Assembly (NCBI GenBank): GCA_020629965.1
Contig: JAHDCG010000010.1
Span: 29,649 to 79,700 of the forward strand
Direction of reading: 5' to 3'
From: Saprospiraceae bacterium
Lineage (GTDB): Bacteria > Bacteroidota > Bacteroidia > Chitinophagales > Saprospiraceae
DNA length: 50,052 nucleotides
In this document: positions 526 through 50,052 of the stretch, piece by piece
Layout: each line of letters begins with the position of its first letter
How positions within the stretch are numbered: the stretch's first letter is position 1
Made by a program: the position numbers and the translations under genes
Notes under the pieces: generated by a model
Database searches by the model: none
The model's input: the letters and a program-made list of their open reading frames with translations, nothing else
What the model was told of the DNA's origin: nothing

Positions 526-575
526 TTTGAGATGTTAGATGTTAGACTTTAGATTTTAGACTCCGCTTTAACTTT
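526..575. repeat. Heptamer array, TTAGA core (copy 1)
   Basis: Starting directly after the stop codon at 525, the sequence runs in 7-nt units with core TTAGA and two changing bases (TG, TG, CT, TT), then CTCCG. A 6-nt periodic stretch follows (CTTTAA, CTTTGA, CTTTGG, CTTTTG). A closely related array fills the gap at 33122-33171. The periodicity is seen directly; the function is unknown. Confidence 0.75.
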
Positions 576-592
576 GACTTTGGCTTTTGCAG

Positions 593-635
593 AAAATACG
601 AATGTGCAACTCGGTTTGCGCGTTCGTATTTTTTT
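593..635 (+). terminator. Probable intrinsic terminator after the first gene
   Basis: AAAATACGAA at 593-602 pairs with TTCGTATTTT at 623-632. Additional TGCAA/TTTGCG-type pairing is possible in the loop, and a T run reaches 635. It sits about 70 bases after the first gene and before the AsmA-type gene, so it should end the first transcript. Confidence 0.65.
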
Positions 636-720
636 GGGGGCAGAACATAAACTCTTGCTCGTTCGTTTTTAAAAGGCAGCGATTTTGTCTGCTTAAAACA
701 CGAAATGCCGTGCGCTCGGT

Positions 721-3700
721 ATGCAAGAAAAAAACTCCGTAAATACTTCGATTTTTGGTCGCATCCTGCGGTTTTTTGCCGTCGTCGTGCTGTTGCTTTT
801 GGCGGCGGCGGGCGGTCTGTATTACTTTTCTTCGGCGCAAAGCAAAGACCGCATTCCGGCGGCTATTCTCGATTATGCGGTACAGGATTTGGGTATCGAC
901 TTAGGTTTTACTTCATATCGGGCGAGCAACGCCGACGATTTTCCTTACGTGATTTTTGAAATCGACGGGCTGTATGTCAAGGGCACCGCCGAAGATGATG
1001 CCGCCGAAAGACTGCTGAACGTCGAGCGGGTGCGCTTCAAAGTATCTCCGTGGGAAGTGCTGACCGACAAGGTACAGCTACGGGATATTTTTATCGAAGG
1101 AGCCAAAATTCGCTTTTTTAAAGACAGCACGGGTTTGAATAATGCAGATTTTAAAGAGTTTTTCGATGCTTCGGCAGGTAAACCCAAGAAGACGCGTAAC
1201 AGTCTTTTCTTTAATGAAGTTACCGCCCGCGATGTGGATTTTGCTTTTGTCGATGCGCAAAAAGGACAGCGTTTTGCGGGAAAATTTTCGCATCTGGATT
1301 TAAAAAATGAAACGCAGGGCACGGACGTTTTGCTGAATGCCGTCGCCGATGTGCATTTTGAGGGATTAACTTTCAGAGAAAAAAACGGGGCATTTTTGGA
1401 GGATAAAAAGGCGCAACTAAACCTGAATTTTGCGCTGCAAACCGACTCTATTCGCATGTACGATTCGGCTCTGCTGACTAACGGTGATACTTTACAATTG
1501 TCGGGAAATTTTTCGCGCGGCATTACTTCCGATTTTAGCCTGTCGGTGTTGAGTCGCGGTATTTTGTTGGAAAATGCGCGAGCACTTTTGAGCGATGATT
1601 TGCAAATGAAACTCGCACCTTTTGCGGTGAAAAAACCGATTGCCGCCCGCTTTCGGGTGCGCAAAAAGGCAACCGTCGGTGAGAAGCCGCGGATGCGCGC
1701 GGATTTTCGGACACTCGACACAGATTTTAAATTTAATGCGGTCGATGTGTCGGACATGTCGCTCGTCGGAGTCTGGATAAGCGACTGCCAAACCCCGCCC
1801 GGTGAGGAGGTACGGCGCGGCGAAGACTGTCTGCGCGTCCGGCGCGTGACGGGCAATTTATTCGATGCGCACCCCGTCGATTTGAGCGGCGAAATTCGGA
1901 ATTTTAAAACGCTCGAACTCAGCGCAAAAGGTACGGCAACAATGGATTTGCCCGCTTTGCAGCCGTATTTGGAAAAGACAATTTGGGAACTGAAGGCCGG
2001 CAAAGCGGACGTCGAAATCGACTACACCGGCAATTTTTCGGAGATACTGAAAAGCAAATTTCGGCAGCGCAAAGGACTGACGGCGCAGGTAAAAATCCGC
2101 AATGCGCGGGCGGAGGCTTACGATATCCCTTTGGAAAATATCAACGGAAATGTGGGGCTGACGGCTCTGCGGGCAAACACCTCAGACTTTACTTTTTCTT
2201 ACAAAAATACGCCGCTGCGGCTGCGCGGTTCGATGCAAAATGTTCTGCGGTACTTGTTTGAAGCGGATGTGGTTTTACAGTCCGATTTGGAGCTTTACGC
2301 GCGGGAAGTCGATGTAGAAAAGTTCACTTCCGAGACTTACAACAGCAGCGACAAAACACTCAGCCTTAGCCTTTTAGACGAGCAGGTTGCAAAAATTTCC
2401 GATGCCGTTACCGAAATTATTACGGGAAAAGCAGCCGTCGAAATCGACCGTGCTTTCTACCGCACGACGGAGGCAAAAAACACAAATTTCACTCTCGAAT
2501 GGCGAGATACAAACAGCGCAAAATTTAGTCCGCAAAAGCCTTTTTTCGCTCTTAAAAACTTCCGCACGACAGTTGCCGACTCGCTGCAATTACAAATGAA
2601 TGCCCGCGCTTTTTCCGCCGACAATCCGCGCATCGAAGCCGATATTGCCTTGCAATCTCCTTTCTCCGCCCTGCCGCCGGCATTTTTAAATGAGAAAATA
2701 AAATTTGAAAAAGGCGCAACGGAAATCAATGCCGCCGCCGAGTTTTTACTCGCCGATTTAGAAAATTTAAACGCCGAAAATCTCGAACTCAGCGGCAATT
2801 TAAAAATCAAAAACACCGCGATTTATCTGCCCGAAAGCGAAGTGCGCCTCAGCGGTCTCAATTCCGAAATTTCTTACACCGAAGACAGCATTTCTCTGCA
2901 GCCCCTGCGCGGAAAAGTCCTCGGCAATCGCGCCGTCGTGACGGGTACGGTAGCGAACTATTTATCGTATTTCGACAACGGAAAAAAGAAAACGAAAAGC
3001 GATTTAAAAATTAAAATTCCGCGTTTTTCCGCCAAAAAACTAACGGGCGCAAACACCGACGAAGCCTTTGCCGCTAAGACTTTTTTCGCCGACCTCCTCC
3101 CCTTCTTTCGCAAAATGCGCGGTACGGCAGACATTGAAATCGCAGACTTTGCCGTACAGGATTTTCCGCTGAAAAACCTTTCTTTTTCACTCGCCGCCAA
3201 AAAGGATAATGCCGGAAAAATCAACTTGGAAATGAGTGATATTTCCGCCCTGCTTTTCGACGATGCGCCGCTGTTGGCAGACGTAAAAATCATCGACCTC
3301 GCCGACCCGCTGCTGACCGTTAATCTGGAAACTAAAATGGCGGTCGAGGACTTTAGTCGCTTGCTCAAAAACGATAATTTTCGACCCGAAGCGGGCACGA
3401 CCGACCTCAAAATTACCTACGCGAATAAACTGCGCGACTCGCTTAACGTGCAGCATTATCTGCTCGACGGCGACCTCAACGGCAGGATTGAATTCAGCGA
3501 AGGGGCGGTCGCTTACCCCCCGCGCGGCTTGACTTTTGACCGGATGAACGGCTATGTGACCTATTCGCGCGACGCGGGTCTGCAAGTCAATTTCGACGAC
3601 ATGTTGTTCAATGAAAACACCGTCAGTATCGACGGTCGGGTACAGGATTTCTTCCCTTTCTTTTTTGAGGAAAACGAGGATTTTATTTTGGAAATGAATT

Positions 3701-4584
3701 TGCGCTCGCCGTTGATTGATTTCAAAAAATTCAGAACGCCGAAAGCGATTGCCGAAGAGCTGACCGAGGCGGAAATTGCGGAAGCGACCGCGACGGAAAA
3801 CGTTATCGACCGCTTACTGGCGGAGGGAAAACTATCTTTAAACTTGCAGGCGGATAAGGTGGTTTACGTGGATTTTACGGGAGAAAATGTCGTCGGGCGC
3901 GCCGATATTACGGACAATGATGTGCGTCTCGACACTTTCAGAATGCAAACCGCCGACGGCACAATGGGTTTGAATGCGGTCATCAACAACATCGACAAAG
4001 ACTTTCCGCTGATGATTTTGGATTTGGATTTTGCGGAAATTAACGCGCCGAAAGCCTTCCGAGGTTTTCAAAATTTCGGACAAACGACCCTGACCGACGA
4101 GAACCTAAAGGGCACTGTCGATGCCGAAATTGCCTTCTCGACGGTGCTCAATAACAACTACGAAGTGCAGTCCGAAACGATGCACGGTACGCTCGATTTG
4201 CACATCAGCGACGGCGAGTTTATCGACTTCAGCGGGCTTAATAATCTGGACGGTTTTTTATGGAAAAACCGTCGCCTCGACCACGTTTATTTTAGTGATT
4301 TGCAGGTTAAAATCGACGTCGAGGGGGAGGATTTGCACTTTGCACCGTTTACTTTCAACTCGACCGCCGCCCGCTTTACGATGGAAGGCACGTACACTTT
4401 CAGCGATGCGGACAGAACCGACCTCTACATCGAAGTGCCGCTCGGCAATATTTTTACGCGCTACGTGAACCGCGAAACGATACGCAAAAATTATAAAAAA
4501 CGCGGCGGCATTCCGATTATCGTACACGTGACGGAGAAGCGGAAGGAGTTGGAATTCGGGTTTGGATTGTATCGGAAGGAGTAG
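721..4584 (+). CDS. AsmA-family protein (large, TamB/AsmA-like)
   Basis: The 1287-residue protein starts with a short basic segment and one strong transmembrane helix at about residues 12-35 ending in a Gly/Tyr-rich stretch. A very long, beta-rich periplasmic region follows, without cysteine clusters or catalytic motifs. The last 300 residues carry the AsmA C-terminal-like pattern of alternating hydrophobic strands. Family members are anchored in the inner membrane, reach across the periplasm and are implicated in lipid movement to, or assembly of, the outer membrane. The ATG at 721 was chosen because it places the membrane helix near the N-terminus. The gene is alone between a terminator and the Uma2 genes. 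The family call is firm; the substrate is unknown. Confidence 0.85.
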   Translation: MQEKNSVNTSIFGRILRFFAVVVLLLLAAAGGLYYFSSAQSKDRIPAAILDYAVQDLGIDLGFTSYRASNADDFPYVIFEIDGLYVKGTAEDDAAERLLNVERVRFKVSPWEVLTDKVQLRDIFIEGAKIRFFKDSTGLNNADFKEFFDASAGKPKKTRNSLFFNEVTARDVDFAFVDAQKGQRFAGKFSHLDLKNETQGTDVLLNAVADVHFEGLTFREKNGAFLEDKKAQLNLNFALQTDSIRMYDSALLTNGDTLQLSGNFSRGITSDFSLSVLSRGILLENARALLSDDLQMKLAPFAVKKPIAARFRVRKKATVGEKPRMRADFRTLDTDFKFNAVDVSDMSLVGVWISDCQTPPGEEVRRGEDCLRVRRVTGNLFDAHPVDLSGEIRNFKTLELSAKGTATMDLPALQPYLEKTIWELKAGKADVEIDYTGNFSEILKSKFRQRKGLTAQVKIRNARAEAYDIPLENINGNVGLTALRANTSDFTFSYKNTPLRLRGSMQNVLRYLFEADVVLQSDLELYAREVDVEKFTSETYNSSDKTLSLSLLDEQVAKISDAVTEIITGKAAVEIDRAFYRTTEAKNTNFTLEWRDTNSAKFSPQKPFFALKNFRTTVADSLQLQMNARAFSADNPRIEADIALQSPFSALPPAFLNEKIKFEKGATEINAAAEFLLADLENLNAENLELSGNLKIKNTAIYLPESEVRLSGLNSEISYTEDSISLQPLRGKVLGNRAVVTGTVANYLSYFDNGKKKTKSDLKIKIPRFSAKKLTGANTDEAFAAKTFFADLLPFFRKMRGTADIEIADFAVQDFPLKNLSFSLAAKKDNAGKINLEMSDISALLFDDAPLLADVKIIDLADPLLTVNLETKMAVEDFSRLLKNDNFRPEAGTTDLKITYANKLRDSLNVQHYLLDGDLNGRIEFSEGAVAYPPRGLTFDRMNGYVTYSRDAGLQVNFDDMLFNENTVSIDGRVQDFFPFFFEENEDFILEMNLRSPLIDFKKFRTPKAIAEELTEAEIAEATATENVIDRLLAEGKLSLNLQADKVVYVDFTGENVVGRADITDNDVRLDTFRMQTADGTMGLNAVINNIDKDFPLMILDLDFAEINAPKAFRGFQNFGQTTLTDENLKGTVDAEIAFSTVLNNNYEVQSETMHGTLDLHISDGEFIDFSGLNNLDGFLWKNRRLDHVYFSDLQVKIDVEGEDLHFAPFTFNSTAARFTMEGTYTFSDADRTDLYIEVPLGNIFTRYVNRETIRKNYKKRGGIPIIVHVTEKRKELEFGFGLYRKE

Positions 4585-4588
4585 GTTT

Positions 4589-4621
4589 TTTGTTTTAATT
4601 CCGAAAAGTCCTTTATCTTTG
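4589..4621 (+). promoter_or_regulatory. Bacteroidota-type promoter for the first Uma2 gene
   Basis: TTTG at 4589-4592 and TATCTTTG at 4614-4621 are separated by 21 bases. They match the TTTG / TANNTTTG pattern of Bacteroidota housekeeping promoters. The box ends 15 bases before the chosen ATG at 4637, implying a very short leader and supporting that start over the upstream in-frame ATG at 4562. Confidence 0.6.
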
Positions 4622-4636
4622 GAGAAAAAATTGAAT

Positions 4637-5272: not shown

Positions 5273-5276
5273 AACG

Positions 5277-9678: not shown

Positions 9679-9895
9679 AAGGCAATCAAAGTTTTAGGAG
9701 ATAACAAATTATACGGGTGTTCTAACCGATTTGACCGGTCAGATATTGCATTTTTGTGTGATATTTTTTTGACGAAGGGAAAGAGGGGTTTGTTACAATT
9801 TGTTTCTCGGCATTTACGTTTCCCGGCATTTACATACATTGAGGCGAACCAAGCTGAAGTATTTTTTGCCTTCGGCGTTCACAGGCAGGTGATTT

Positions 9896-9975
9896 GCACG
9901 AACCGTAGCATCGACTTTAGTCGATAAGCTGTTCTTTTTTAACAGGTCGATTAAAATCGACGTTACGGAGCGTGC
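9896..9975. repeat. Long compound palindrome (REP/MITE-like)
   Basis: The 307-bp gap 9679-9985 holds an 80-base compound hairpin. Outer arms GCACG (9896-9900) and CGTGC (9971-9975) enclose CCGTAGC/GTTACGG. Inside are two self-palindromes with 7-bp arms (ATCGACT..AGTCGAT and GTCGATT..AATCGAC) and a CTGTT/AACAG stem around a T-rich loop. The first 26 bases (9900-9925) recur exactly at 45903-45928. The rest of the gap (9679-9895) shows only a short direct repeat of CGGCATTTAC and no gene. Confidence 0.7.
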
Positions 9976-33121: not shown

Positions 33122-33171
33122 TTTTGAGATTTTAGATTTTAGACGTTAGATTTTAGACTCCGTTTTGACTT
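33122..33171. repeat. Heptamer array, TTAGA core (copy 2)
   Basis: The whole 50-bp gap between the binding-protein stop and the ATPase start is filled by 7-nt units with core TTAGA and changing dinucleotides (TT, TT, CG, TT), ending CTCCG as in the array at 526. In gene orientation the array is inverted (TCTAA units). Confidence 0.75.
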
Positions 33172-35031: not shown

Positions 35032-35062
35032 CAAAGATATGATTTTTAGATAAATCTAAAAA
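35032..35062 (-). promoter_or_regulatory. mntR promoter with overlapping palindromic operator
   Basis: On the minus strand the -7 box TATCTTTG occupies 35032-35039, 27 bases before the start codon. Immediately upstream, within the spacer and -33 position, lies TTTTTAGAT-AA-ATCTAAAAA (35043-35062), a palindrome with perfect 9-bp arms and a 2-bp centre. Its shape and sequence resemble MntR-type operators (TTTAGG..CCTAAA). Binding there would block RNA polymerase. The match to a Mn regulator is inferred from the adjacent gene. Confidence 0.75.
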
Positions 35063-35097
35063 TAGTTGATGGTTGATAGTTGATGGTTGATGGTGGG
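35063..35097. repeat. Heptamer array, GGTTG core (copy A)
   Basis: Four 7-nt units TAGTTGA, TGGTTGA, TAGTTGA, TGGTTGA, then TGGTGGG, directly adjoining the mntR operator. It lies between the divergent mntR and pyrR genes. The same core recurs inverted at 41026 and 46604, and in direct orientation at 48207 and 50036. Confidence 0.7.
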
Positions 35098-35220: not shown

Positions 35221-35769
35221 ATGATGAAAAAAGGCAGAGTCATATTAACCAAAGAGCGTTTTCAGTTGACTATCGACCGTTTGTGCCGGCAGTTAATCGA
35301 GCAATACGACGACTTTTCCGATACCTGTTTGGTCGGCATTCAGACGGGCGGCGTGTCGCTGTCGGAAAGATTGCAGCAGCGACTGTCGCAGATGTTGGAT
35401 ATGCCGCATATCACTTCCGGCAAGCTGGACATTACCTTTTACCGCGACGATTTTCGGACGGCGAGCAAGCCTTTAAGTGCCTACCCGACCGAGATGGATT
35501 TTTTGGTCGAAGACAAAAACGTCATCCTCGTCGATGATGTGCTGTACACCGGGCGCACCGTGCAGGCGGCGCTGACTGCGCTTAATCACTACGGCAGACC
35601 GCGCCGCGTCGATTTGGTGAGCATGGTCGATCGACGTTTTAACCGCGAATTGCCCATTCAATCTAACTACATCGGCCTCGCCGTCGATGCCCTCGATAAA
35701 GCCTACGTCAGCGTAGAATGGAAAGAAAAACAGGGCGAAGACAAGATTTTGATTTTCGAAAATAAGTAA
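35221..35769 (+). CDS. pyrR: PyrR-type pyrimidine regulator / uracil phosphoribosyltransferase
   Basis: The 182-residue protein has the type I phosphoribosyltransferase fold with the PRPP-binding motif VILVDDVLYTGRTVQAAL at about residues 101-118 and the upstream LVGIQTGGVSLSERLQQRL. The length agrees with PyrR (about 180). Family members attenuate pyr operons by binding UMP and mRNA, and have weak uracil phosphoribosyltransferase activity. An in-frame ATG at 35080 gives 47 extra residues that read through the repeat segment; the ATG at 35221 is preferred. pyrB follows after 71 bases, supporting a role in pyrimidine synthesis. RNA binding in this phylum is not established. Confidence 0.9.
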   Translation: MMKKGRVILTKERFQLTIDRLCRQLIEQYDDFSDTCLVGIQTGGVSLSERLQQRLSQMLDMPHITSGKLDITFYRDDFRTASKPLSAYPTEMDFLVEDKNVILVDDVLYTGRTVQAALTALNHYGRPRRVDLVSMVDRRFNRELPIQSNYIGLAVDALDKAYVSVEWKEKQGEDKILIFENK

Positions 35770-35773
35770 AAAA

Positions 35774-35832
35774 GGAGAGAGGAGAAAGGAGAGAGTCGCG
35801 CACCTCTCCCCTCTCTCCTCGCACCTCTCCTC
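35774..35832. repeat. Purine/pyrimidine heptamer arrays forming a hairpin between pyrR and pyrB
   Basis: Four bases after pyrR come units of core GGAGA with GA, AA, GA. After GTCGCGC come the pyrimidine units CTCTCCC, CTCTCTC, CTCGCAC and CTCTCCT, ending 8 bases before pyrB. GGAGAGAGG (35774-35782) is exactly complementary to CCTCTCTCC (35810-35818), so the transcript could fold into a long hairpin inside the operon. A roughly U-poor continuation argues against a simple terminator. Confidence 0.7.
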
Positions 35833-35840
35833 TTAAAAAA

Positions 35841-36770
35841 ATGGCAAAAGAACTCAGCACCAAACACGTACTCGGCATCAAATATCTGAATGAAAGTGAC
35901 ATCAATCTCATCTTTCAGACCGCCGAGCAATTCAAAGAAGTCATCAATCGACCGATTAAAAAAGTGCCTTCTTTACGCGATGTGACGGTAGCCAATTTGT
36001 TCTTTGAAAACAGCACGCGCACCCGCATTTCTTTCGAGCTTGCCGAAAAACGCCTTTCCGCCGATACCGTTAATTTTTCCGCCGCTTCCTCTTCCGTCAA
36101 AAAAGGCGAAACCCTCCTCGATACCGTCAACAATATCTTGTCGATGAAAGTCGATATGGTCGTCATGCGGCATCCGGCTCCCGGAGCGCACCATTTTTTG
36201 GCGCAACACATCGAAGCCAACATCGTCAACGCCGGCGACGGCACGCACGAACACCCGACGCAGGCTCTGCTCGATGCTTTCTCCATGCGAGAAAAAATCG
36301 GCGACTTACGCGGTAAAAACATCGCAATTTTCGGCGACATCGTGCACTCGCGCGTGGCATTGAGCAATATTTTCTGCTTACAAAAACTCGGTGCCAACGT
36401 CAAAGTCTGCGGCCCGCCGACCCTCATTCCGCAGCACATCGAAAAACTCGGCGTCGGCGTCTCACACAATGTCCGCGACACCCTCGAATGGTGCGACGTC
36501 GCCAACGTCCTGCGTATTCAACTGGAGCGACAAGACATTAAATTCATCCCTTCGCTCCGCGAATACTCCCGCTACTACGGCATCAATAAAAAACTGCTCG
36601 ACAGCCTCGACAGCGAGGTTTTGGTCATGCACCCCGGCCCGATAAATCGCGGCGTAGAAATCACAAGCGACGTAGCCGACAGCGACCAATCCATTATTTT
36701 AGAGCAAGTCGAAAACGGCGTGGCGGTAAGAATGGCGGTTTTGTATTTGTTGGCAGCGAAGAGGAAATGA
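35841..36770 (+). CDS. pyrB: Aspartate carbamoyltransferase catalytic subunit
   Basis: The 309-residue enzyme carries the carbamoyl-phosphate motif FENSTRTRISFELAEKRL at about residues 53-70. It also has the Ser-Lys loop SSVKKGETLLDT, HPTQALLDAF near residue 136 and the C-terminal VMHPGPINRGVEI near 263. It joins carbamoyl phosphate and aspartate to form carbamoyl aspartate in pyrimidine synthesis. The length is that of a normal PyrB trimer subunit. No pyrI regulatory subunit is adjacent, so regulation may instead come through the upstream pyrR. The next gene, after a 368-bp repeat-rich gap, is unrelated. Confidence 0.97.
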   Translation: MAKELSTKHVLGIKYLNESDINLIFQTAEQFKEVINRPIKKVPSLRDVTVANLFFENSTRTRISFELAEKRLSADTVNFSAASSSVKKGETLLDTVNNILSMKVDMVVMRHPAPGAHHFLAQHIEANIVNAGDGTHEHPTQALLDAFSMREKIGDLRGKNIAIFGDIVHSRVALSNIFCLQKLGANVKVCGPPTLIPQHIEKLGVGVSHNVRDTLEWCDVANVLRIQLERQDIKFIPSLREYSRYYGINKKLLDSLDSEVLVMHPGPINRGVEITSDVADSDQSIILEQVENGVAVRMAVLYLLAAKRK

Positions 36771-36774: not shown

Positions 36775-36854
36775 CGATTTACGAATTACGATGTACGATT
36801 TACGAGGGCGGGAGCGATTTACGAATTACGATGTACGATTTACGAGGGCGGAGG
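36775..36854. repeat. Heptamer arrays, TACGA core, as a 40-bp direct duplication
   Basis: Beginning 4 bases after the pyrB stop are four units CGATTTA, CGAATTA, CGATGTA, CGATTTA, then CGAGGGCGGGAG. The whole 40-bp block is repeated at 36815-36854 with only minor change at its end. The same units occur inverted at 37104-37138. Confidence 0.8.
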
Positions 36855-37008: not shown

Positions 37009-37043
37009 AAAACAAAACAAAACAAAACAAAACAAAACAAAAC
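37009..37043. repeat. AAAAC pentanucleotide repeat, seven units
   Basis: Seven perfect AAAAC units run from 37009 to 37043, about 95 bases before the K+ channel start. Perfect short repeats of this kind can change length by slippage, so expression of the channel gene could vary; that is inference. Confidence 0.8.
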
Positions 37044-37103
37044 ACAAAAAAGAAAAAACACAACAACCAAACAACCCCAAAACCTAAAGCAAGCAATCCA
37101 AAT

Positions 37104-37138
37104 TCGTAAATCGTACATCGTAAATCGTAAATCGCCAA
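37104..37138. repeat. Inverted TACGA-core heptamer array abutting the K+ channel start
   Basis: Units TCGTAAA, TCGTACA, TCGTAAA, TCGTAAA, TCGCCAA end exactly at the ATG at 37139. Read on the other strand they give CGATTTA, CGATTTA, CGATGTA, CGATTTA, differing from the array after pyrB at one unit only. Confidence 0.8.
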
Positions 37139-38510: not shown

Positions 38511-40931
38511 ATGAACATTTCCAAAGTAAAATTAACCGATTCCAATCTGTTTATCGGCTTGCTCCTGCTGATGACCGCCGCGCTGTACGCCCAACCGCCC
38601 ATCGACTGGGAACACACCTACGGCGGCAGTAATTACGAAGAACTCCAAGCCATGAACTACGCCGGTGACGGCTATATTTTTGCCGGCAACAGCTCCTCCG
38701 AAGACTTCGACGTCATGCCGCCGCACAACGGTTTCAGCGACGCTTGGGTCTTCAAAACCAACGTGACCGGCGATGTCGTCGAGTGGCAAAACACTTTCGG
38801 CTGTGAAGGTTTTGAGCATATTTGGGATATTCTCCCTTTAGATAACGGCGATTTTTTCCTCATCGGTCAGTCCGCCTCCGATGCCTGCCCCAACGGCAAA
38901 ACCGAAGACTCACGCGGCGGAGACGACTATTGGCTCATCAAAATCGACGCCGACGGCAATTACCTCTGGGACAAAACCTACGGCGGCGAGGCTGCCGACA
39001 TTGCCCGTAAAATACTGCCCACCGACGACGGCAATTTTCTTATCGGCGGCTTCTCTTATTCACAAGACTTTGCGACCACCGGCATCGGCGAGCGCACCGT
39101 ACCCAATCGCGGCGAGGCAGATTATTGGCTGGTAAAAATCGACAGCGACGGCAATAAAATCGCGGATTATGTTTACGGAGGCACGCCGCAATCCTTATGG
39201 GAAGGCGATGACTGGCTCTACGACATGAAAAAAATGCCCGACGGCACTTTTCTTTTGGCGGGTTGGTCGGAAAGCAACGGCGGTTTTGAAAAAACCAACG
39301 ACTCTTACGGCAGAAACGACTACTGGCTCATTCAAATCGATCAAAACGGGCAAAAAGTCACGAACGGCGGCACCAAAGACGGCGATTATATCTACGGCGG
39401 CAATTCCGTCGATGCGTTGCAAGAAGTCTTGATAACCATAGACGGCGGCATTTTATTGGTCGGTGAGTCCTTTTCTCAGCCCTTCAGCGATACCGGCATC
39501 GGCAGCAAAACCACGCCGCATTACGGTGCACCCGAAGCCGATGAAGACCTTTGGATTGTCAAATTAAATCCTGCTTTTGAAATCGTGTGGCAGCGCACCT
39601 ACGGCGGTAACAGCCGCGAAATACCGCACGTCGTGTGGGAAAATCGCAGCGGAAAACTGTGGATTGCCGGCGACTCCGTTTCCCCTGCTTCCGGTAACAA
39701 AGAAGACGACAACATCAACGGAAGCAAAGATATTTGGATGCTGCTGCTGACCCCCGACGGCGACAAAATCTGGGAGCAAACCTACGGCGGCGACGGCAGC
39801 GAAGCCCCCGAAGAAATCCTGCCCGCCCACGACGGCGGCTACATCATCGGCGCGCATTCCGACAGCAATCAAAGTCAGTGGAAATCCGAAGACAGTCGCG
39901 GCTTCAACGATTTTTGGATTATCAAAACCGATTGCTCCCTTTACGACACCGAGCTGGACATCGAAACCAACGTCTGCCTCGGCGAGCCGTTTCCGCTCGC
40001 ACCCGAGTTCGAAGGCTGTGACGACTGCGAATATATCTGGCTCGACGGCACGACCGACACCGTGCGCATCGTCAGTCTGACCGAAAATACCGATTTTGAA
40101 ATCCTCGTCACTGACGCCGACGGCTGCGAAGACGAAGGCATCGTGCAGACCATCGTACAGAGTAACCCCGAAATTTTAGAACTCGAAAACATCCCGCCGA
40201 CCTGCACCGACGACACCGACGGCAGCCTGTCGATACTCGAAGCCTCCGGTCTCACCCCGCACGAGTTTTCGCTGAACGGAAGCGACTTTTCGACCGTCGC
40301 TGATTTTGATAACCTGCCCGCCGGCGACTATCAAATCACGCTGCGCGACTCCATCGGCTGCCTTGCCGATACCACAATCAACCTTCCCAATCCGCTCGAA
40401 CCGCTCATCGACATCGGCAACGATACCATTATCGAACTCGGCGACAGCATTTTGGTACAGGTCATCACCTCGCCCGGCGTCGATACTTTTATTTGGCAAA
40501 ATCCGGACTTGGTCAGTTGTGCCGACTGTCCGTTTACCTACATTCGCCCGACACAGCACACGCGTTACCAAATCACCGGTTATAACGCGCAAGGCTGCGC
40601 AATCGAAGCCGCCAAATCCGTCGCCGTCAAACGCGAAACGCCTTTCTACGCGCCCACCGCTTTCTCACCCGACAACAACGGCGACAACGAATTTTTCATG
40701 CTTTTTCCCGGCGACGGCATTATCGGCATCAAAAATTTCTCAATTTATAATCGCTGGGGAGAAATCATGCACCGCCGCGAAAACGTAGCTCTGCACGACC
40801 CGCGCGACGGCTGGAACGGCAACTATCGCGGGAAATCCGCCCCGACGGGCGTCTATGTGTGGGCGGCGGAAGTTGAATTTTTGGACGGAAGAACGGAAGT
40901 ATTTCAAGGAGATTTCACGCTGATGCGATAA
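38511..40931 (+). CDS. Secreted T9SS type B (gliding motility-associated C-terminal) protein
   Basis: The 806-residue protein has a signal peptide (about 1-26, ending YAQ). About seven repeats follow, each containing a W.xTYGG or YGG element (WEHTYGGSN, WDKTYGGEA, WQRTYGGNS, WEQTYGGDG) roughly every 50-70 residues, suggesting a beta-propeller. PKD/Ig-like segments run from about 505 to 690. The last 90 residues (FYAPTAFSPDNNGDNEFF...IYNRWGE...GVYVW) are the CHU_C type B sorting domain. The protein should be delivered to the cell surface by T9SS. The start at 38511 is preferred over the in-frame ATG at 38448 because it begins the signal peptide. Function beyond export is unknown. Confidence 0.9.
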   Translation: MNISKVKLTDSNLFIGLLLLMTAALYAQPPIDWEHTYGGSNYEELQAMNYAGDGYIFAGNSSSEDFDVMPPHNGFSDAWVFKTNVTGDVVEWQNTFGCEGFEHIWDILPLDNGDFFLIGQSASDACPNGKTEDSRGGDDYWLIKIDADGNYLWDKTYGGEAADIARKILPTDDGNFLIGGFSYSQDFATTGIGERTVPNRGEADYWLVKIDSDGNKIADYVYGGTPQSLWEGDDWLYDMKKMPDGTFLLAGWSESNGGFEKTNDSYGRNDYWLIQIDQNGQKVTNGGTKDGDYIYGGNSVDALQEVLITIDGGILLVGESFSQPFSDTGIGSKTTPHYGAPEADEDLWIVKLNPAFEIVWQRTYGGNSREIPHVVWENRSGKLWIAGDSVSPASGNKEDDNINGSKDIWMLLLTPDGDKIWEQTYGGDGSEAPEEILPAHDGGYIIGAHSDSNQSQWKSEDSRGFNDFWIIKTDCSLYDTELDIETNVCLGEPFPLAPEFEGCDDCEYIWLDGTTDTVRIVSLTENTDFEILVTDADGCEDEGIVQTIVQSNPEILELENIPPTCTDDTDGSLSILEASGLTPHEFSLNGSDFSTVADFDNLPAGDYQITLRDSIGCLADTTINLPNPLEPLIDIGNDTIIELGDSILVQVITSPGVDTFIWQNPDLVSCADCPFTYIRPTQHTRYQITGYNAQGCAIEAAKSVAVKRETPFYAPTAFSPDNNGDNEFFMLFPGDGIIGIKNFSIYNRWGEIMHRRENVALHDPRDGWNGNYRGKSAPTGVYVWAAEVEFLDGRTEVFQGDFTLMR

Positions 40932-41025: not shown

Positions 41026-41067
41026 CCGTCAACCGTCAACCGTCAACCAACAACCGTCAACCGTACT
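41026..41067. repeat. Inverted GGTTG-core heptamer array before SemiSWEET
   Basis: Units CCGTCAA (three times), CCAACAA, CCGTCAA and CCGTACT end one base before the ATG at 41069. The changing dinucleotide is GT or AA on a fixed CAACC core. The rest of the 137-bp gap shows only weak 7-base periodicity (TTGGAGG, TTGGGAT) just after the previous stop. Confidence 0.75.
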
Positions 41068-41068: not shown

Positions 41069-41326
41069 ATGATTGAACTCCTCGGCACCGTCGCCGGCCT
41101 TTGTACCACCGTCGCCATTTTGCCGCAAATTTACAAGTCCTTTAAAACAAAAAAGACGGCAGATATATCTCCCGTCATGTATTCGATTTTAGTCTTCGGT
41201 CTTGGTTTGTGGTGCATTTACGGCATTATCAAAGACGACGTGCCGCTGATTATTTTCAACGGTCTGGGCGTTGCTTTTAATGCGACTTTGCTGGTTTTGT
41301 ATTTTAAATATAAGGACGGGAAGTGA
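41069..41326 (+). CDS. SemiSWEET-type PQ-loop sugar transporter
   Basis: The 85-residue protein has three hydrophobic helices (about 4-22, 37-56 and 62-80). The PQ-loop motif is in the first: VAILPQIYKSFKTKK, with Pro19-Gln20. This is the half-sized SWEET architecture that works as a dimer to move sugars across the membrane. The residues lining the pore (Trp53 region, Asn around 69 and 76) are consistent. It lies alone between a type B T9SS gene and a convergent HAD phosphatase. The substrate is not predictable from sequence alone. Confidence 0.9.
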   Translation: MIELLGTVAGLCTTVAILPQIYKSFKTKKTADISPVMYSILVFGLGLWCIYGIIKDDVPLIIFNGLGVAFNATLLVLYFKYKDGK

Positions 41327-45882: not shown

Positions 45883-45902
45883 TATTTAGTTGTCGGTTGC
45901 CT

Positions 45903-45928
45903 GAACCGTAGCATCGACTTTAGTCGAT
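45903..45928. repeat. Partial copy of the dispersed palindrome at 9900
   Basis: These 26 bases, beginning GAACCGTAGCATCGAC, are identical to 9900-9925 and contain the ATCGACT..AGTCGAT self-palindrome. The second half of the 9.9-kb element is not present here; GGCTG followed by a T run replaces it. Confidence 0.75.
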
Positions 45929-45984
45929 TGGCTGTTTTTAAAACGGTGGACGGTTGTATGGTACGGCGCGAATTATCTTACGAT

Positions 45985-46503
45985 TTACAACTCAACCTTA
46001 TACAACATCAACTCTTCCGTTTCCCCCGGCAGGGTCGTAAAGCCTTCGTGCCGCAGACCGATTTTTTCCAACAGTTTTTGGGATGCCGTATTATGTTTTG
46101 CGGTAATGCCGAGTATAGTTTTTAGGTCGAAATCTTCGCGTGCGGCTCGCATCAGTCGCGTCGCGCTCTCGGTGCCGTAGCCTTGCCCTTCGTAGTCGGG
46201 CAAAAAGGCGAAACCGATGTCGGTGCCGGGCAGTCCGGGGCGGTCGTAAAAGCCGCAATTTCCGATTTTCGTGCCGTCGCTTTTCAGTATCACCGCGTAA
46301 TTGCCGAAGCCCAATCTTTCCAACTGCGGTGTCATGCGGTCGGCAATGTATTTTTCCGCCTCGGCTACCGTTTTGACGTTGCGGTCACCGATATTTTGCA
46401 GCCATTTCGGCATGTTGAGGACTTCTAAAACGAAGGGCGCGTCTTCCCTGACCACGGGGCGCAGCAGCAATCTTTCGGTCTCGAAGGTTTTGTATTTTTT
46501 CAT
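45985..46503 (-). CDS. GNAT family N-acetyltransferase (RimJ/RimL type)
   Basis: The 172-residue protein begins RLLLRPVVREDAPFVLEVLN, typical of the RimJ/RimL branch. The acetyl-CoA loop GQGYGTESATRLM lies near residue 106 and LLEKIGLRHEGF near 150. It transfers acetyl groups to an amine, either a protein N-terminus or a small molecule. The chosen ATG at 46503 begins the canonical N-terminus; the longer frame from 46557 passes through heptamer repeats and is not coding. It is followed by the prmC gene on the same strand and preceded by three heptamer arrays. Confidence 0.88.
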   Translation of the reverse strand: MKKYKTFETERLLLRPVVREDAPFVLEVLNMPKWLQNIGDRNVKTVAEAEKYIADRMTPQLERLGFGNYAVILKSDGTKIGNCGFYDRPGLPGTDIGFAFLPDYEGQGYGTESATRLMRAAREDFDLKTILGITAKHNTASQKLLEKIGLRHEGFTTLPGETEELMLYKVEL

Positions 46504-46509
46504 TTGGCA

Positions 46510-46643
46510 GTAAAGAGTAGAGAGTGAAGAGTAAAGAGCCACGCGGGCAACTGACAACGGGCAACCGACAACGAGTCACAAGAATCGAAAGCACAGCGAA
46601 AAACCACAAACCCAACCACCAACCATCAACCACCAACCAACTC
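46510..46643. repeat. Three different heptamer arrays between GNAT and HupE-like genes
   Basis: Array 1 (46510-46537) has four units of form GTNNAGA, six bases from the GNAT start. Array 2 (46546-46573) alternates GGCAAC-N and GACAACG. Array 3 (about 46604-46643) has CCACCAA, CCATCAA, CCACCAA and CCAACTC, the inverted GGTTG family, and runs into the stop codon of the HupE-like gene. Nearly the whole 138-bp gap is thus periodic. Confidence 0.75.
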
Positions 46644-47319
46644 AGTGCGAATGAAAATACCCGTACATCTGAAAGACAAACAGCGCGACACCGGCAACGA
46701 TTAGGAAGCCGTTGGCGACTTTGTAAAAAGTCTCGTAGCTTTTGTATTTTTTCCACTTTGAAATAATAAAAACGATGGGAATGAGCGCGAGGATTTGCCC
46801 TAATTCCACGCCGATATTAAAGCTGACAATTTTGGCGACAATCATTTCCGTACCGATGTCGAAAGATTGCAGACGCGCCGACAAACCGAAGCCGTGAATG
46901 AGTCCGAAAATGAAGACCATGAACAGCAAATTCGGCGAGGTGACGCCGAAATATTTTTTAAAACCTTCCAAATTTTCAAAGCCCTTGTACAACACGCTCA
47001 AAGCGATAACCGCGTCGATGAGATGCTCGTCCGCTTTGATGCCGAGCAGCGTCGCACCGATGAGCGTGATGCTGTGACCGATGGTAAAAACGGTAATGAA
47101 TTTTACAATGTCTTTAAAATTGTTCAGATAAAAAATGACCCCGACGAGGAAAAGCAGGTGGTCGTAGCCGGTCAGCATGTGCTTGGCACCGACGAGGATG
47201 TAACTGAGCAGCCCGCCGTTAGCAAGAATTTCCTGATCGGTTTGCGAAACGCCGTGTGCTTGCAGCACAAGCGGCAACAGCAATAAAAATAAGAGAGAAA
47301 GTCGAGTTTGTAAATTCAT
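46642..47319 (-). CDS. HupE/UreJ-type membrane protein
   Basis: The 225-residue protein has a signal-like first helix ending before AHGVSQTD, then about six transmembrane helices. Conserved features of the HupE/UreJ_2 family are AKHMLTGYDHLLFLVG near residue 45, FTIGHSITL near 78, FGLIHGFGLSARL near 139 and FNIGVELGQ near 168, and a short His-containing C-terminus. Related proteins act as nickel or cobalt permeases in other bacteria, but many Bacteroidota members occur away from hydrogenase or urease genes, as here. The transport role is therefore inferred. It begins 203 bases from the divergent barrel gene. Confidence 0.85.
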   Translation of the reverse strand: MNLQTRLSLLFLLLLPLVLQAHGVSQTDQEILANGGLLSYILVGAKHMLTGYDHLLFLVGVIFYLNNFKDIVKFITVFTIGHSITLIGATLLGIKADEHLIDAVIALSVLYKGFENLEGFKKYFGVTSPNLLFMVFIFGLIHGFGLSARLQSFDIGTEMIVAKIVSFNIGVELGQILALIPIVFIISKWKKYKSYETFYKVANGFLIVAGVALFVFQMYGYFHSH

Positions 47320-47522
47320 ATCGGGTTGTTATTATAAAAGGTGCAAATTTATAAAAATAAATCTATCACGACCACGACTTAGCTTATGTTGAAGAATTAA
47401 AATAACCGTTTTGTCGCTTTTAAAATATCTATGATTGCCGACGCCTGAAAGAAAATGTGACGTTCTTGATTGTTGCCGTCATAATGCTATAAAATTAATT
47501 TTAAAAATCAAAAATACATTTC

Positions 47523-48206
47523 ATGTACAAAAGCTTTACCCTTACACTCCTTTTCTCCGTTTTCTCCTTTGCGGTTTTGCAGGCGCAATTTACGGACATC
47601 AGCAACACCGCTATTAAAGAGCCGACTTCGGCTCTGAGCCTTATGGTCGGTCTGACTAATTACCAAGGCGACCTCATCGAGCCGACTTTCGACTTCGGAG
47701 AGAGTAATTTCGCTTTCGGTTTGCGTTACAGCAAATACTTTTCCGAAAAATTGACCGGTAATCTCGGTGTGCTTTTCGGGGGTATTTCGGGTTCGGATGC
47801 GGACTATGATGCACGTGTAGCGCGCGGTTTTGAGTTGGAAAAGACCTCTTTGGTCAATGTCGCTTTGAGCGGTGACTACTACATTCTCGGTCAAAATCGC
47901 TACCGCAAAGATGAGAATACGGCTATCTATTTGAATGCCGGCATCAATCTGTCTTTTATAGATCCGGAGCCGACGGGCATCCTCGACGGTTCGGAAGAAG
48001 ACTTCGGCGGTTCGGCTTTCGGTGTACAAATCGGCGGCGGTCTGAAGCAGCATTTGAGCGAAAGACTCAGCTTAGCGGCAGAGTTAAGTTTCCGCCCGAC
48101 TTTTTCCGATGAAATCGACGGCATCAGCAAAAACGGAAATCCCGACAACAATGATACCTTCGTTTGGATTGGTTTAGCGGCGACTTATCAATTGGGAGAG
48201 AAGTAG
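47523..48206 (+). CDS. Outer membrane beta-barrel protein (DUF6089-like)
   Basis: The 227-residue protein has a signal peptide (about 1-21, ending LQAQ). A series of amphipathic beta strands follows, beginning with LSLMVGLTNYQGDL, a start seen in DUF6089-type barrels. The strands alternate with acidic loops (SDADYDARVARGFELEK and DGSEEDFGG). The last strand VWIGLAATYQLGEK ends close to the C-terminus, as in small outer membrane barrels. Probably eight strands in the outer membrane. No T9SS tail. The function is unknown; it may be structural. A strong terminator follows about 110 bases downstream. Confidence 0.8.
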   Translation: MYKSFTLTLLFSVFSFAVLQAQFTDISNTAIKEPTSALSLMVGLTNYQGDLIEPTFDFGESNFAFGLRYSKYFSEKLTGNLGVLFGGISGSDADYDARVARGFELEKTSLVNVALSGDYYILGQNRYRKDENTAIYLNAGINLSFIDPEPTGILDGSEEDFGGSAFGVQIGGGLKQHLSERLSLAAELSFRPTFSDEIDGISKNGNPDNNDTFVWIGLAATYQLGEK

Positions 48207-48235
48207 ATGATGGTTGGTAGTTGACGGACGAGGAA
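48207..48235. repeat. Short GGTTG-core heptamer run after the barrel gene
   Basis: Directly after the stop codon the sequence reads ATGGTTG, GTAGTTG, ACGGACG, about two and a half units of the GGTTG family also found at 35063 and 50036. Confidence 0.5.
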
Positions 48236-48318
48236 AGATGCTCGAAACTTGTGTCTTTTCATTGGGTCTGTCTTACTTTATACAACTTTCGATGACCGTC
48301 ATTTTGCTTTTGCATCTG

Positions 48319-48361
48319 AAAAAAATCCTGAATGTTCAGCGGAACGTTCAGGATTTTTTTT
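48319..48361 (+). terminator. Strong intrinsic terminator after the barrel gene
   Basis: AATCCTGAATGTTC (48324-48337) pairs with GAACGTTCAGGATT (48342-48355) with one mismatched pair. It is flanked by an A run upstream and a T run downstream, so it works in both directions. Confidence 0.85.
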
Positions 48362-48425
48362 GTGTTAAATCAGGCACAGTTCCGTCGTATTTCCGTTTCG
48401 TCAAACATTACTTCTGCGTTTCTCC

Positions 48426-48433
48426 TACCTTTG
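48426..48433 (+). promoter_or_regulatory. Candidate -7 box for the dockerin protein gene
   Basis: TACCTTTG fits TANNTTTG and lies 81 bases before the ATG at 48515. No TTTG -33 box at standard spacing was found. Confidence 0.4.
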
Positions 48434-48514
48434 TCAGACCATGAAATACTTCCCCCTTATTTTTAAATTATAATTCCGATACACGGGCTTGATTTTCAGA
48501 CTTATGACCTTGAA

Positions 48515-50035
48515 ATGAAAATCCCACAAACTTTTTATCCCATCACATTTCGATTACTCAGTCTGCTCCTCGCAGCCCTGCTGCCGCATTTTCTTGTCGC
48601 TCAATGCGACCCCGACACCGAGCCGCCCGTCGCTCAATTCGATACTTTGGTCATTTCCTGCACCGCCGTTTTACCGCCCGCCGGCACCGAAATTACTTTT
48701 CTCGACAACTGTGACCCCGACCCGCAAGTCGAAATTATCGACCAATTTACCGACGATAATTTTAACTGCGGTGACGCTGCTTTCCCGCAAGGGGTCGTGT
48801 ACATTACGCGCACCTACGAAGCAACCGATGTATCCGGCAATATCGCAACGGCGGATTTAACTATCGCCCTCGCGCGCCAAGTCGGCGTCACTTTCCCCGC
48901 CGACATCACTTGGACGGCGGAAGAATTTGCGGATTTTCCAAACATCACCGATCCGCAGCCTTTGAGCGACGACCTCGCCGAGACCGGCTCGGGTGTTCCC
49001 GACATCGCGTTAGGTCAGTTTTGCAATTACGCCCTCAGCAGCGAAACGGAAGTGTTGAACGGCTGCGGCGAAAACAACATCACCTTTCTGCGCACCTGGA
49101 TTGTCTTGGATTGGTGCACAAATTCTTTGATTACGGAAGGGGAAGACGGCAGTGACAACACCCAACTCATCAGCATTATCGACGCGGAAAACAGTACCGC
49201 GCCGACGGCGGTCTGCATTAGTAATATTGCCGTCGAAATCATGCCTTTGGACTCGAACGGCGACGGTCAACCGGATTTTTGTATGGTTGAATTATTCGCC
49301 GCTGACTTTGACAACGGCTCGACGGACGACACGACGCCGGCGGAAGACTTGCAGTTTTACTTCGACTCTGATTTTACCGAAACGTTTCGCGTCTTCACCG
49401 GGGCAGACCTCGGGCTTAATAATCTGCTGATTTATGTTGTGGATGAAGACGGCTGTTTCGCGGTTTGCGAATTGACTTTGCTTATTTCCGCTCCGGCCGG
49501 TACACCTTGCAATGCTTTCGACACCGAGGGCGTAAGCGGGCAGGTCAGAGTGCAAACGGGCGAACCGATTAACGACGTAACGGTGAGTATCGGCAGTTTG
49601 CAAGACATCACCGAAGCCGACGGTATGTACGACATTTCCGTGATAATCGAAGCGGGCAATTTCTTTGAGTTAATCGGCGATAAAAACACAAACATTGCCA
49701 ACGGCATAACGGGCGCGGATTTAATCCTCATCCGTCAGCACATTTTGAATGTCAATTCTATCGAAAATCCGGTTTACCTGCGCGCCGCCGATATCAACAA
49801 CAGCGGTGCGATTACGGGCGCGGATTTGGTCTTGGCGCGGCAGGCGATTTTGGGTGTAATTACCGAATTTCCGAACAGCGACTCTTGGCGATTTTACTTT
49901 AATTCTCAGCCCGTTCCGGAAGAATTGACAGAAAGTGCTGTCTTTCAGGCAGACGGCAGTTCGCAGGAATTTGAAATCGATTTTTGGGGCTATAAGGTGG
50001 GTGATGTGAACGGGAGTGCAGACCCGCAGAATTGA
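48515..50035 (+). CDS. Secreted protein with C-terminal dockerin-like repeats
   Basis: The 506-residue protein has a signal peptide (about 1-29, ending LVAQ). Beta-rich HYR/Ig-like segments follow, with cysteine pairs (ISCTAVLPP, DNCDPDPQ and NGCGENN) up to about residue 335. A carboxypeptidase-regulatory-like stretch covers about 342-390. Dockerin type I-like repeats follow: ITGADLILIRQHILN near 402 and NSGAITGADLVLARQAIL near 430, which bind calcium. The end DVNGSADPQN lies where related Saprospiria proteins often continue to a cohesin-like domain and a T9SS tail. Here it stops with TGA at 50033-50035 and a heptamer repeat follows, so it may be truncated. The type of export is uncertain. 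Confidence 0.8.
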   Translation: MKIPQTFYPITFRLLSLLLAALLPHFLVAQCDPDTEPPVAQFDTLVISCTAVLPPAGTEITFLDNCDPDPQVEIIDQFTDDNFNCGDAAFPQGVVYITRTYEATDVSGNIATADLTIALARQVGVTFPADITWTAEEFADFPNITDPQPLSDDLAETGSGVPDIALGQFCNYALSSETEVLNGCGENNITFLRTWIVLDWCTNSLITEGEDGSDNTQLISIIDAENSTAPTAVCISNIAVEIMPLDSNGDGQPDFCMVELFAADFDNGSTDDTTPAEDLQFYFDSDFTETFRVFTGADLGLNNLLIYVVDEDGCFAVCELTLLISAPAGTPCNAFDTEGVSGQVRVQTGEPINDVTVSIGSLQDITEADGMYDISVIIEAGNFFELIGDKNTNIANGITGADLILIRQHILNVNSIENPVYLRAADINNSGAITGADLVLARQAILGVITEFPNSDSWRFYFNSQPVPEELTESAVFQADGSSQEFEIDFWGYKVGDVNGSADPQN

Positions 50036-50052
50036 TGACGGTTGACGGTTGA
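50036..50052. repeat. GGTTG-core heptamer run at the window end
   Basis: After the final stop codon, read from its TGA, the sequence is TGACGGT, TGACGGT, TGA and then the window ends. The array probably continues beyond it. Confidence 0.6.

What the first reader, a model, noticed from the sequence alone, without database searches (positions are those of the whole stretch)
526..50052. Intergenic gaps are filled by tandem heptamers of five fixed plus two variable bases
At least ten gaps (526, 33122, 35063, 35774, 36775, 37104, 41026, 46510-46643, 48207, 50036) run in 7-nt units. Within an array about five bases are constant (TTAGA, TACGA, GGTTG/CAACC, GGAGA, GTNNAGA) and two neighbouring bases change from unit to unit. 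Arrays mostly start 0-4 bases after a stop codon or end 0-8 bases before a start codon, and sometimes fill a gap completely. A 7-nt unit breaks codon phase, so it could only persist outside genes. Cyanobacterial short tandemly repeated repetitive (STRR) heptamers are the nearest known parallel. The constant/variable design and the placement at gene edges are not something I can match to a described Bacteroidota element. They may result from a replication or repair process, serve as mRNA end or spacer signals, or be sites for a repeat-binding protein.
Basis: partly seen in the sequence, partly recalled or inferred. Interest (0 to 1): 0.72.

Follow-up and report, generated by a model that had tools for sequence, protein, structure and literature searches.

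The report
Four-unit heptamer arrays mark gene borders
In this bacterium (likely of the Saprospiraceae), hundreds of short blocks made typically of about four 7- or 8-letter repeats sit right beside gene starts and gene ends, almost all facing the same way, while a sister species often has no repeat or a different one at the same border; they are likely small spreading DNA blocks that would be kept as border signals.

Summary
Real, and stronger than stated. In the first 666 kb read, period-7 arrays are 126 intergenic to 1 coding. In 1.27 Mb (19% of the genome), border arrays (within 30 nt of a gene) have the G-richer strand running from gene into gap in 212 of 218 cases, at starts and stops alike. 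Units have a 5-nt core plus 2 variable bases (octamers: 3). Four units is the commonest length of three or more in six of eight families, and TTAGA, TACGA and GTTGA8 neighbours tend to be unlike. Sister genome G001 keeps the rule (62 to 9), but orthologous gaps mostly differ in array or core. Here 1 of 218 border arrays has four GGG tracts, so quadruplexes are no general reason; simple slippage fits poorly. I favour short mobile blocks kept at borders by polarity, perhaps because polymerase entering a gene then makes C-rich RNA; untested. New variant of a known kind.

The parts
524..560 (+). TTAGA heptamer array directly after the stop codon at 525
   Evidence: TRF; period scan
33123..33157 (+). 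TTAGA array with outer TTTGAGA cap, covering most of the 50-nt gap between two minus-strand genes; the orthologous gap in G001 has a TTAGA array at the opposite edge
35062..35094 (+). GTTGA heptamer array (variable TG/TA)
   Evidence: more than 30 nt from the genes I called
35773..35795 (+). GGAGAGA array, left arm after the stop at 35769
   Evidence: the orthologous gap in G001 has GGTRTCA units on the left and GGAGTCA/GATGTCA units (inverse) on the right
35803..35830 (-). inverse GGAGAGA array, right arm before the pyrB start at 35841
36775..36805 (+). TACGA array after the pyrB stop (36770)
36815..36845 (+). second, identical TACGA array
37101..37134 (-). inverse TACGA array before ATG 37139
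41026..41064 (-). CAACCGT array before the ORF starting at 41069
46509..46538 (+). GAGTRRA array, left side of the gap
   Evidence: the orthologous G001 gap has no array
46544..46573 (-). CAACYGA array inside the same gap
46601..46639 (-). CAACCNN array before the minus-strand gene ending at 46642
50036..50052 (+). GGTTGAC array after the stop at 50035, cut by the end of the contig

Best explanation
The window holds members of a genome-wide class of ~30-bp blocks, typically about four tandem 7- or 8-nt units with a 5-nt core, that lie directly outside gene starts and stops with the G-richer strand pointing into the gap; they are likely short mobile or copied blocks that are predicted to be retained because RNA polymerase entering a gene would then make a C-rich, G-poor RNA. 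Shown: intergenic restriction, border hugging, polarity at both gene ends, four-unit mode in most families, constant cores with variable linkers, inverted pairs more often than expected, no detectable sharing of array-bearing gaps with a sister species, several cores in one genome. Inferred: that blocks spread by copying (REPIN-like in manner), and that polarity is a filter acting on transcription into genes (for instance Rho or another RNA-binding factor loading on the C-rich strand; at start codons also avoidance of extra start codons). The factor that reads or moves the blocks is not identified.
For: Polarity: 212 inward, 5 outward, 1 tie of 218 border arrays in G000; G001 62, 9, 2 of 73; by core instead of GC skew 215 inward, 3 outward, 7 undecided of 225; contigs C58-C77 taken blind: 56 inward, 2 outward; another genus, G004: 13 of 14, ties counted as C-richer. 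Intergenic 126 to 1 coding, blind contigs 110 to 3. Copy number: exact runs of 2/3/4/5 units TTAGA 13/17/30/8, TACGA 7/9/18/2, GTTGA8 15/7/25/1. Neighbours unlike: GTTGA8 4 of 61 identical, pool expectation 0.25; TTAGA (<=6 units) 16 of 120, 0.24; TACGA 22 of 86, 0.33; against shuffles within arrays these deficits are about 2 sd each. Adjacent arrays within 300 bp: 84 of 116 +-, 2 -+ in G000; 22 of 37 +-, 3 -+ in G001. Both borders of a gap: 47 seen, 25.6 expected of 627 gaps; G001 12, 4.1 expected of 381. Same family at both borders of a gap 15 of 32 (0.235 by chance), at both borders of a gene 0 of 8. Short motifs are enriched just inside arrays of several families (TTGCTTG in 15 of 187 inner flanks, 1.1 expected). 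Turnover: of 19 printed orthologous gaps 6 have arrays in both species (4.6 expected if independent), and only 1 of the 6 has the same core at the same border (scored by eye).
Against: No insertion machinery was tied to the arrays: the only Y1-type transposase match in G000 has no array in the 1.57 kb fetched around it (the contig ends under 60 nt downstream). No target-site duplication was demonstrated, and no single motif or conserved interior was found. Only 43 of 160 border arrays have a same-family inverted partner within 400 nt, so a two-armed mobile unit does not cover most heptamer arrays. A core scan of 70 nt from each border gave 195 inward and 16 outward-only borders of 1,468 (15 of the 16 at stops), and in G001 12 arrays run the wrong way at a border (4 in G000). 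TACGA arrays are barely C-rich on the entering strand and GTTTA8 has no fixed pyrimidine-C step, which weakens a Rho-type reading. GTTGACG/GGTTGAC arrays (69 of 79 adjacent GTTGA7 units and 87 of 116 GGTTG units identical) look like ordinary slippage arrays. GGAGA and AGAGT (5 and 6 arrays) have three, not four, as the commonest length, and TTAGA in G001 shows no four-unit mode (26/14/8/1 runs of 2/3/4/5). Array-less stop borders show little inward skew (0.09), so polarity at stops is not a general composition feature.
Confidence: 0.33

Rival explanations
1. Functional border signal made in place: an oligomeric RNA- or DNA-binding protein reads about four equally spaced 5-nt sites at gene borders (post-transcriptional or transcription-ending role), and selection keeps polarity and spacing; no mobility needed.
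For: Polarity, border distance, four-unit mode and constant cores with freer linkers; cores differ yet the architecture is alike in orthologous gaps such as L034 gap 4 and L041 gap 11. PMC4679880 proposed S1, Csp or Csr family readers for TAACTGA repeats.
Against: At least seven cores in one genome would need several readers; array-bearing gaps are not shared between sister species clearly more than by chance (6 of 19 against 4.6 expected).
Confidence: 0.27
2. REPIN/MITE-like hairpin elements in the strict sense: two inverted arrays are the arms of one element moved by a Y1 (RAYT) transposase, and single arrays are remnants.
For: 84 of 116 adjacent array pairs are +-; GTTGA8 has a same-family inverted partner in 15 of 20 cases; RNA folds of the 11 printed pairs are -23 to -50 kcal/mol.
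Against: Partners lacking for most heptamer arrays (TTAGA 7 of 38, TACGA 2 of 16, GTTG7 9 of 63); only 8 of 139 single-border arrays pair with the opposite border better than 97.5% of other borders; variable bases of paired arms do not match better than shuffled pairs in four of five families, GTTG8 being at 0.04; no array next to the one Y1 gene.
Confidence: 0.15
3. Ordinary microsatellites: polymerase slippage favours 7-nt units and arrays survive only outside genes.
For: Heptamers are reported as the most abundant long-repeat class in most genomes, with slippage proposed (PMC4679880 introduction and PMC4692102 discussion, citing Mrazek 2007, which I did not read); GGTTGAC arrays are homogeneous and some are long.
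Against: Polarity 212 to 5; for TTAGA, TACGA and GTTGA8 a mode at four units instead of a steady decline; adjacent units less alike than the pool in the same families.
Confidence: 0.12
4. G-quadruplex elements, as proposed for Xanthomonas and Nostoc heptamers, where four units supply four G-tracts.
For: Same polarity, hugging, inverted pairs and four-unit mode in PMC4692102 (sections 10, 13, 16 read).
Against: 1 of 218 border arrays has four GGG tracts and 135 of 218 lack even four GG tracts, yet four units is the mode of runs of three or more in TTAGA, TACGA, GTTGA8 and GTTTA8.
Confidence: 0.03

Closest known systems
Xanthomonas (GGGANTN)n and Nostoc GGGGA(T/C)T heptamer repeats (PMC4692102; sections 10, 13, 16 and search passages read)
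   Same: Heptamer with five constant and two variable positions, intergenic, four units most common, convergent inverted pairs, mostly within 0-50 bp of ORFs with the G strand non-coding upstream and coding downstream, overlap with stop codons, few in divergent gaps.
   Different: One core type per genome, with G-tracts. Repeats there mostly lie between the same genes in two Xanthomonas species, whereas here array-bearing gaps are not clearly shared between sister species. Here several cores, most without G-tracts, octamers as well, unlike neighbours in three families, and different cores at orthologous borders.
TAACTGA direct repeats of Beggiatoaceae, Cyanobacteria and five Bacteroidetes (PMC4679880; abstract and sections 3, 8, 10, 24 read)
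   Same: Heptamer direct repeats, intergenic, often within a few nt upstream of start codons, patchy distribution.
   Different: A single heptamer there; no TAACTGA direct repeat in my samples of G000 or G001.
Cyanobacterial STRR heptamers (recalled) and the degenerate heptanucleotides of the Nostoc trnL intron P6b stem (PMC3488679, passages read)
   Same: Degenerate heptamers; [quoted passage not shown]
   Different: P6b lies inside an intron, not at gene borders.
REP/REPIN elements with TnpAREP (RAYT) (PMC6006769, passages read)
   Same: Short intergenic units, several families per genome, inverted pairs.
   Different: REPs are palindromes; these are tandem arrays, mostly without a partner, and none was found beside the one Y1 gene in the sequence at hand.

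Membership tests
ORF-border heptamer repeats (PMC4692102 type) | tandem 7-nt unit, intergenic | tested here: met
   126 intergenic, 1 coding
ORF-border heptamer repeats (PMC4692102 type) | G-richer strand runs from the ORF into the gap at both ORF ends | tested here: met
   212 of 218, 5 opposite, 1 tie
ORF-border heptamer repeats (PMC4692102 type) | four units most common | tested here: met
   mode 4 among runs of >=3 in six of eight families, not in GGAGA and AGAGT; counting pairs too, GGTTG and GTTTA8 have more 2-unit runs
ORF-border heptamer repeats (PMC4692102 type) | G-tracts able to form a G-quadruplex | tested here: not met
   1 of 218 has four GGG tracts
ORF-border heptamer repeats (PMC4692102 type) | same unit sequence (GGGAATC, GGGGATT, GGGGACT) | tested here: not met
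   no direct repeat in the G000 or G001 samples
TAACTGA repeats | TAACTGA direct repeats | tested here: not met
   none in 1.27 Mb of G000 or 0.58 Mb of G001
REPIN with RAYT | two inverted copies forming one hairpin | tested here: inconclusive
   43 of 160 border arrays have a same-family inverted partner; 15 of 20 for GTTGA8
REPIN with RAYT | copies flank the transposase gene | tested here: inconclusive
   no array in 1.57 kb around the single Y1 gene, but under 60 nt downstream are in the contig
Slippage microsatellite | neighbouring units most alike, copy number declining steadily | tested here: inconclusive
   not met for TTAGA, TACGA and GTTGA8, where the deficit of alike neighbours is about 2 sd against within-array shuffles; alike neighbours in GTTGA7 and GGTTG

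The most novel reading that the evidence does not exclude
Bacteria of several phyla use an unrecognised gene-border code: fixed-length four-unit arrays with interchangeable 5-nt cores and unlike linkers, set at both ends of genes with one polarity and read by an unknown factor, so that sequence turns over while architecture stays; the quadruplex reading of the Xanthomonas and Nostoc cases would be a special case of it.
Probability: 0.25. Interest if true: 0.85.

Novelty: new variant of a known kind. Interest (0 to 1): 0.6.

Why it matters
Heptamer repeats are reported as the most abundant long simple repeats of most bacterial genomes surveyed (PMC4679880, citing Mrazek 2007), and the papers that I read give them no established function. 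This genome separates the rule (about four units, border, polarity) from the sequence: it keeps the rule with at least seven cores, most without G-tracts, and differs in core from a sister species at orthologous borders. That removes G-quadruplexes as a general explanation, weakens simple slippage, and makes polarity at gene borders directly testable.

Tried and rejected
Slippage: disfavoured for TTAGA, TACGA and GTTGA8 by unlike neighbours and the four-unit mode. G-quadruplex: rejected as general cause. Co-evolving hairpin arms: variable bases of paired arms match no better than shuffled pairs in four of five families (GTTG8 at 0.04; TTAGA7 worse than every shuffle); most single-border arrays lack a pairing opposite border. 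Conserved element interior: gap-to-gap BLAST found dispersed MITE-like families (27 kb of 277 kb of gaps); the arrays are not their ends in the copies printed. Scars of rearrangement: 11 of 19 conserved adjacencies carry arrays in G000. Three-frame stop device: TACGA and GGAGA units carry no stop on the inward strand (by reading the units). Extreme of a general composition skew: array-less start borders are skewed (0.21) but stop borders little (0.09). Known RNA family in the window: none at gathering scores. Organism by name: of the best eight pyrB matches seven are Saprospiraceae MAGs, at 75-85% (80 of 588 kept, and the own genome may be left out); an 827-aa window protein found nothing. Limits: genes were called by my own simple script (72% coding in the first sample), 19% of the genome was read, and some contigs were chosen because they had TTAGA matches; the blind contigs C58-C77 agree. 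Score thresholds and the 30-nt border limit were mine. Lag counts were spoilt by runs of N and discarded; the shuffle control failed and was not rerun.
Full report
What is there. The window is the last 50 kb of contig C272 of a 6.52-Mb draft genome in 291 contigs. Seven of the best eight matches of its aspartate carbamoyltransferase (35841-36770) are Saprospiraceae MAGs at 75-85% identity, so the organism is likely of that family. The scan added an octamer array directly after the stop at 40931. By eye, the window arrays with a clear border have the G-richer strand on + at the left border of the gap and on - at the right border.

Is it more than chance? TTAGANNTTAGANNTTAGA occurs 603 times in the genome and its reversed control 7 times. 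In the first 657 kb of unmasked sequence, ungapped segments scoring 12 or more number 127 at lag 7 and 54 at lag 8; lags 4, 5, 6, 9, 10, 11 and 13 give 7, 5, 23, 33, 17, 5 and 1. Of the 127 lag-7 segments 126 are intergenic, of the 54 lag-8 segments 52, of the 33 lag-9 segments 20, so a few 9- and 10-nt arrays may exist too. A Markov-shuffle control failed and was not rerun. Genes were called by my own codon-usage script (72% coding), so some genes are missed. I read 1.27 Mb (19%) of the genome. Some contigs were chosen because they had TTAGA matches; twenty contigs taken blind (299 kb) gave 110 intergenic and 3 coding arrays.

Unit design. Among 378 intergenic segments (lag-7 and lag-8 lists, some overlapping), 293 fit seven families and 85 were not assigned. 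Period 7: TTAGA, TACGA, GGTTG (with GTTGA), GAGT, GGAGA. Period 8: GTTGA and GTTTA. Core positions are 83-100% constant in TTAGA, TACGA, GTTTA8 and GGTTG and 79-100% in GTTGA8; the commonest base at their variable positions has 39-77%. Linkers are not random (TTAGA is followed by C or T, then mostly T or G). GGAGAGA is rather constant at all seven positions and does not show the 5+2 design.

Length. Exact runs of 2, 3, 4, 5 units in gaps are 13, 17, 30, 8 for TTAGA; 7, 9, 18, 2 for TACGA; 15, 7, 25, 1 for GTTGA8; 40, 14, 23, 1 for GTTTA8; 37, 16, 19, 2 for GGTTG; spacings of 6 and 9-12 give at most 12 pairs per core and a single run of three. Among runs of three or more, four is the mode in six of eight families; GGAGA (5 arrays) and AGAGT (6 arrays) have three. 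In G001 the four-unit mode is seen for TACGA (11 of 16 multi-unit runs) but not for TTAGA (26, 14, 8, 1). Adjacent units are less often identical than the pool predicts in GTTGA8 (4 of 61, 0.25), TTAGA (16 of 120 in arrays of up to six units, 0.24; 23 of 135 in all, 0.23), TACGA (22 of 86, 0.33) and GTTTA8 (6 of 66, 0.13); against shuffles within arrays the deficits are about 2 sd for the first three and 1 sd for GTTTA8. They are more often identical in GTTGA7 (69 of 79, 0.73) and GGTTG (87 of 116, 0.40). Aligned four-unit TTAGA arrays show an outer AGA cap, giving blocks of about 30 nt.

Polarity and position. Of 337 non-overlapping arrays, 218 lie within 30 nt of a called gene. The G-richer strand runs from gene into gap in 212, the other way in 5, tie in 1; starts 82 of 82, stops 130 of 136. 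Median distance is 6 nt at starts and 1 nt at stops; 67 of 136 stop-border arrays overlap or abut the stop codon. By core, with a slightly different set, 215 of 225 are inward, 3 outward, 7 undecided. A core scan of 70 nt from each border gave 195 inward and 16 outward-only borders of 1,468; in short gaps that window can reach the other border. Arrays further in are not polar in one way (nearest border a start: 44 in, 18 out, 2 ties; a stop: 20 in, 33 out, 2 ties). G001: 62 in, 9 out, 2 ties of 73. G004, another genus: 13 of 14, ties counted as C-richer and lag lists overlapping. Divergent gaps are poor in border arrays (19 of 131) against 144 of 385 co-directional and 44 of 111 convergent gaps.

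Pairs. Array neighbours within 300 bp are +- in 84 of 116, -+ in 2, same-way in 27 and with a tie in 3; in G001 +- in 22 of 37, -+ in 3. Both borders of a gap carry arrays in 47 of 627 gaps, 25.6 expected. The family is the same at both borders of a gap in 15 of 32 cases (0.235 by chance) but in 0 of 8 genes. Yet only 43 of 160 border arrays have a same-family inverted partner within 400 nt, 15 of 20 for GTTGA8 but 7 of 38 for TTAGA, and paired arms do not match at the variable bases in four of five families. A hairpin is therefore part of the picture but cannot be the reason for polarity.

Turnover. 21 neighbouring gene pairs are conserved between the G000 and G001 samples; 2 were too long to print. 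Of the 19 scored by eye at a segment score of 9 or more, 6 have no array in either (one has degenerate heptamers in G001), 5 only in G000, 2 only in G001 and 6 in both, 4.6 being expected if independent. Among the 6, only one (L187 gap 6, left border) has the same core at the same border; one (L034 gap 1) has TTAGA at opposite borders. The window's gap before pyrB has GGAGAGA arms in G000, and in G001 GGTRTCA units on the left with GGAGTCA/GATGTCA units on the right, close to the same stop and start codons.

Distribution. TTAGA arrays: 14 of 60 relatives have any match, mostly few; 55 of 395 genomes of the phylum, several of them with a reversed control as high. CAACC arrays: 38 of 150 family members. 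One genome, G538, shows TTAGA pairs in the opposite order at two listed places; it was not followed up.

Known relatives. PMC4692102 (sections 10, 13, 16 read) describes GGGAATC, heterogeneous (GGGANTN)n, in Xanthomonas and GGGGA(T/C)T in Nostoc, with most repeats of four units, convergent inverted pairs, and the same polarity at both ORF ends; it links four to four G-tracts, and finds most repeats between the same genes in two Xanthomonas species, unlike here. PMC4679880 (abstract, sections 3, 8, 10, 24 read) describes TAACTGA before start codons. None of these units is found as a direct repeat in my samples. Literature was looked for in ten searches, in open-licence papers only; none listed a multi-core case in Bacteroidota, which is not proof that none is in print.

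How it may work. Any explanation must give border hugging and one polarity at starts and stops alike. Polarity is equivalent to this: RNA polymerase entering a gene from the gap, sense at the start or antisense at the stop, makes C-richer, G-poorer RNA last before the gene. A filter on transcription into genes would explain all gap types with interchangeable cores; the turnover, the several families, the inverted pairs and the motifs enriched just inside arrays suggest copying or mobility. Both steps are inference. No mover was identified: G000 has one Y1-type transposase match (30.6 bits) whose fetched surroundings have no array.

Noticed in passing
L198:3771-4043, L053:3920-4289, L203:10176-10597, L177:5684-6443: A dispersed palindromic element of about 165 bp with ends reading like AAGTAGCACAC...GTGTGCTACTT, 85-98% alike between copies, looks like a MITE family independent of the arrays.
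   Followed up: partly
L064:8931-9491, L199:13004-13556, L066:7872-8238, L195:12862-13435: A second dispersed gap element rich in CCCCCTAACCCCC...GGGGG hairpins, 80-91% alike.
   Followed up: no
window 36775-36851: A 40-nt unit (TACGA array plus GGGCGGGAG spacer) is duplicated without a mismatch, followed by an AAAAC pentamer tract at 37009-37074.
   Followed up: no
window 50036-50052; L052 end, L055 start, L061 both ends, L065 end, L066 start: Several contigs end in or near homogeneous heptamer arrays, so the longest arrays are probably cut by the assembly.
   Followed up: no
L199:9348-10133: A unit of about 95 bp made of a TACGA array and its inner flank is tandemly repeated about four times.
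   Followed up: no
G538 C2:16476-16553, C12:115036-115118: TTAGA pairs in the order minus then plus, opposite to the rule in G000; gene context unknown.
   Followed up: no
L277:906-1511: Single TnpA/RAYT-like protein (SNHIHLV, YIHRNP by eye) divergent from a gene that reads by eye like a phosphohexomutase; weak Y1_Tnp match.
   Followed up: partly
window 9800-9960 and L044:15800-15960: A hairpin repeat of the form CGTAGCRTCGAYTTTARTCGA...TCGAYTAAARTCGA occurs in more than one gap.
   Followed up: no
L062:10230-10317, L180:17835-17997: Gap borders with GGTTTGAAT-like 9-nt and GGTTGNAAAA-like 10-nt units, suggesting that periods 9 and 10 belong to the same design.
   Followed up: no
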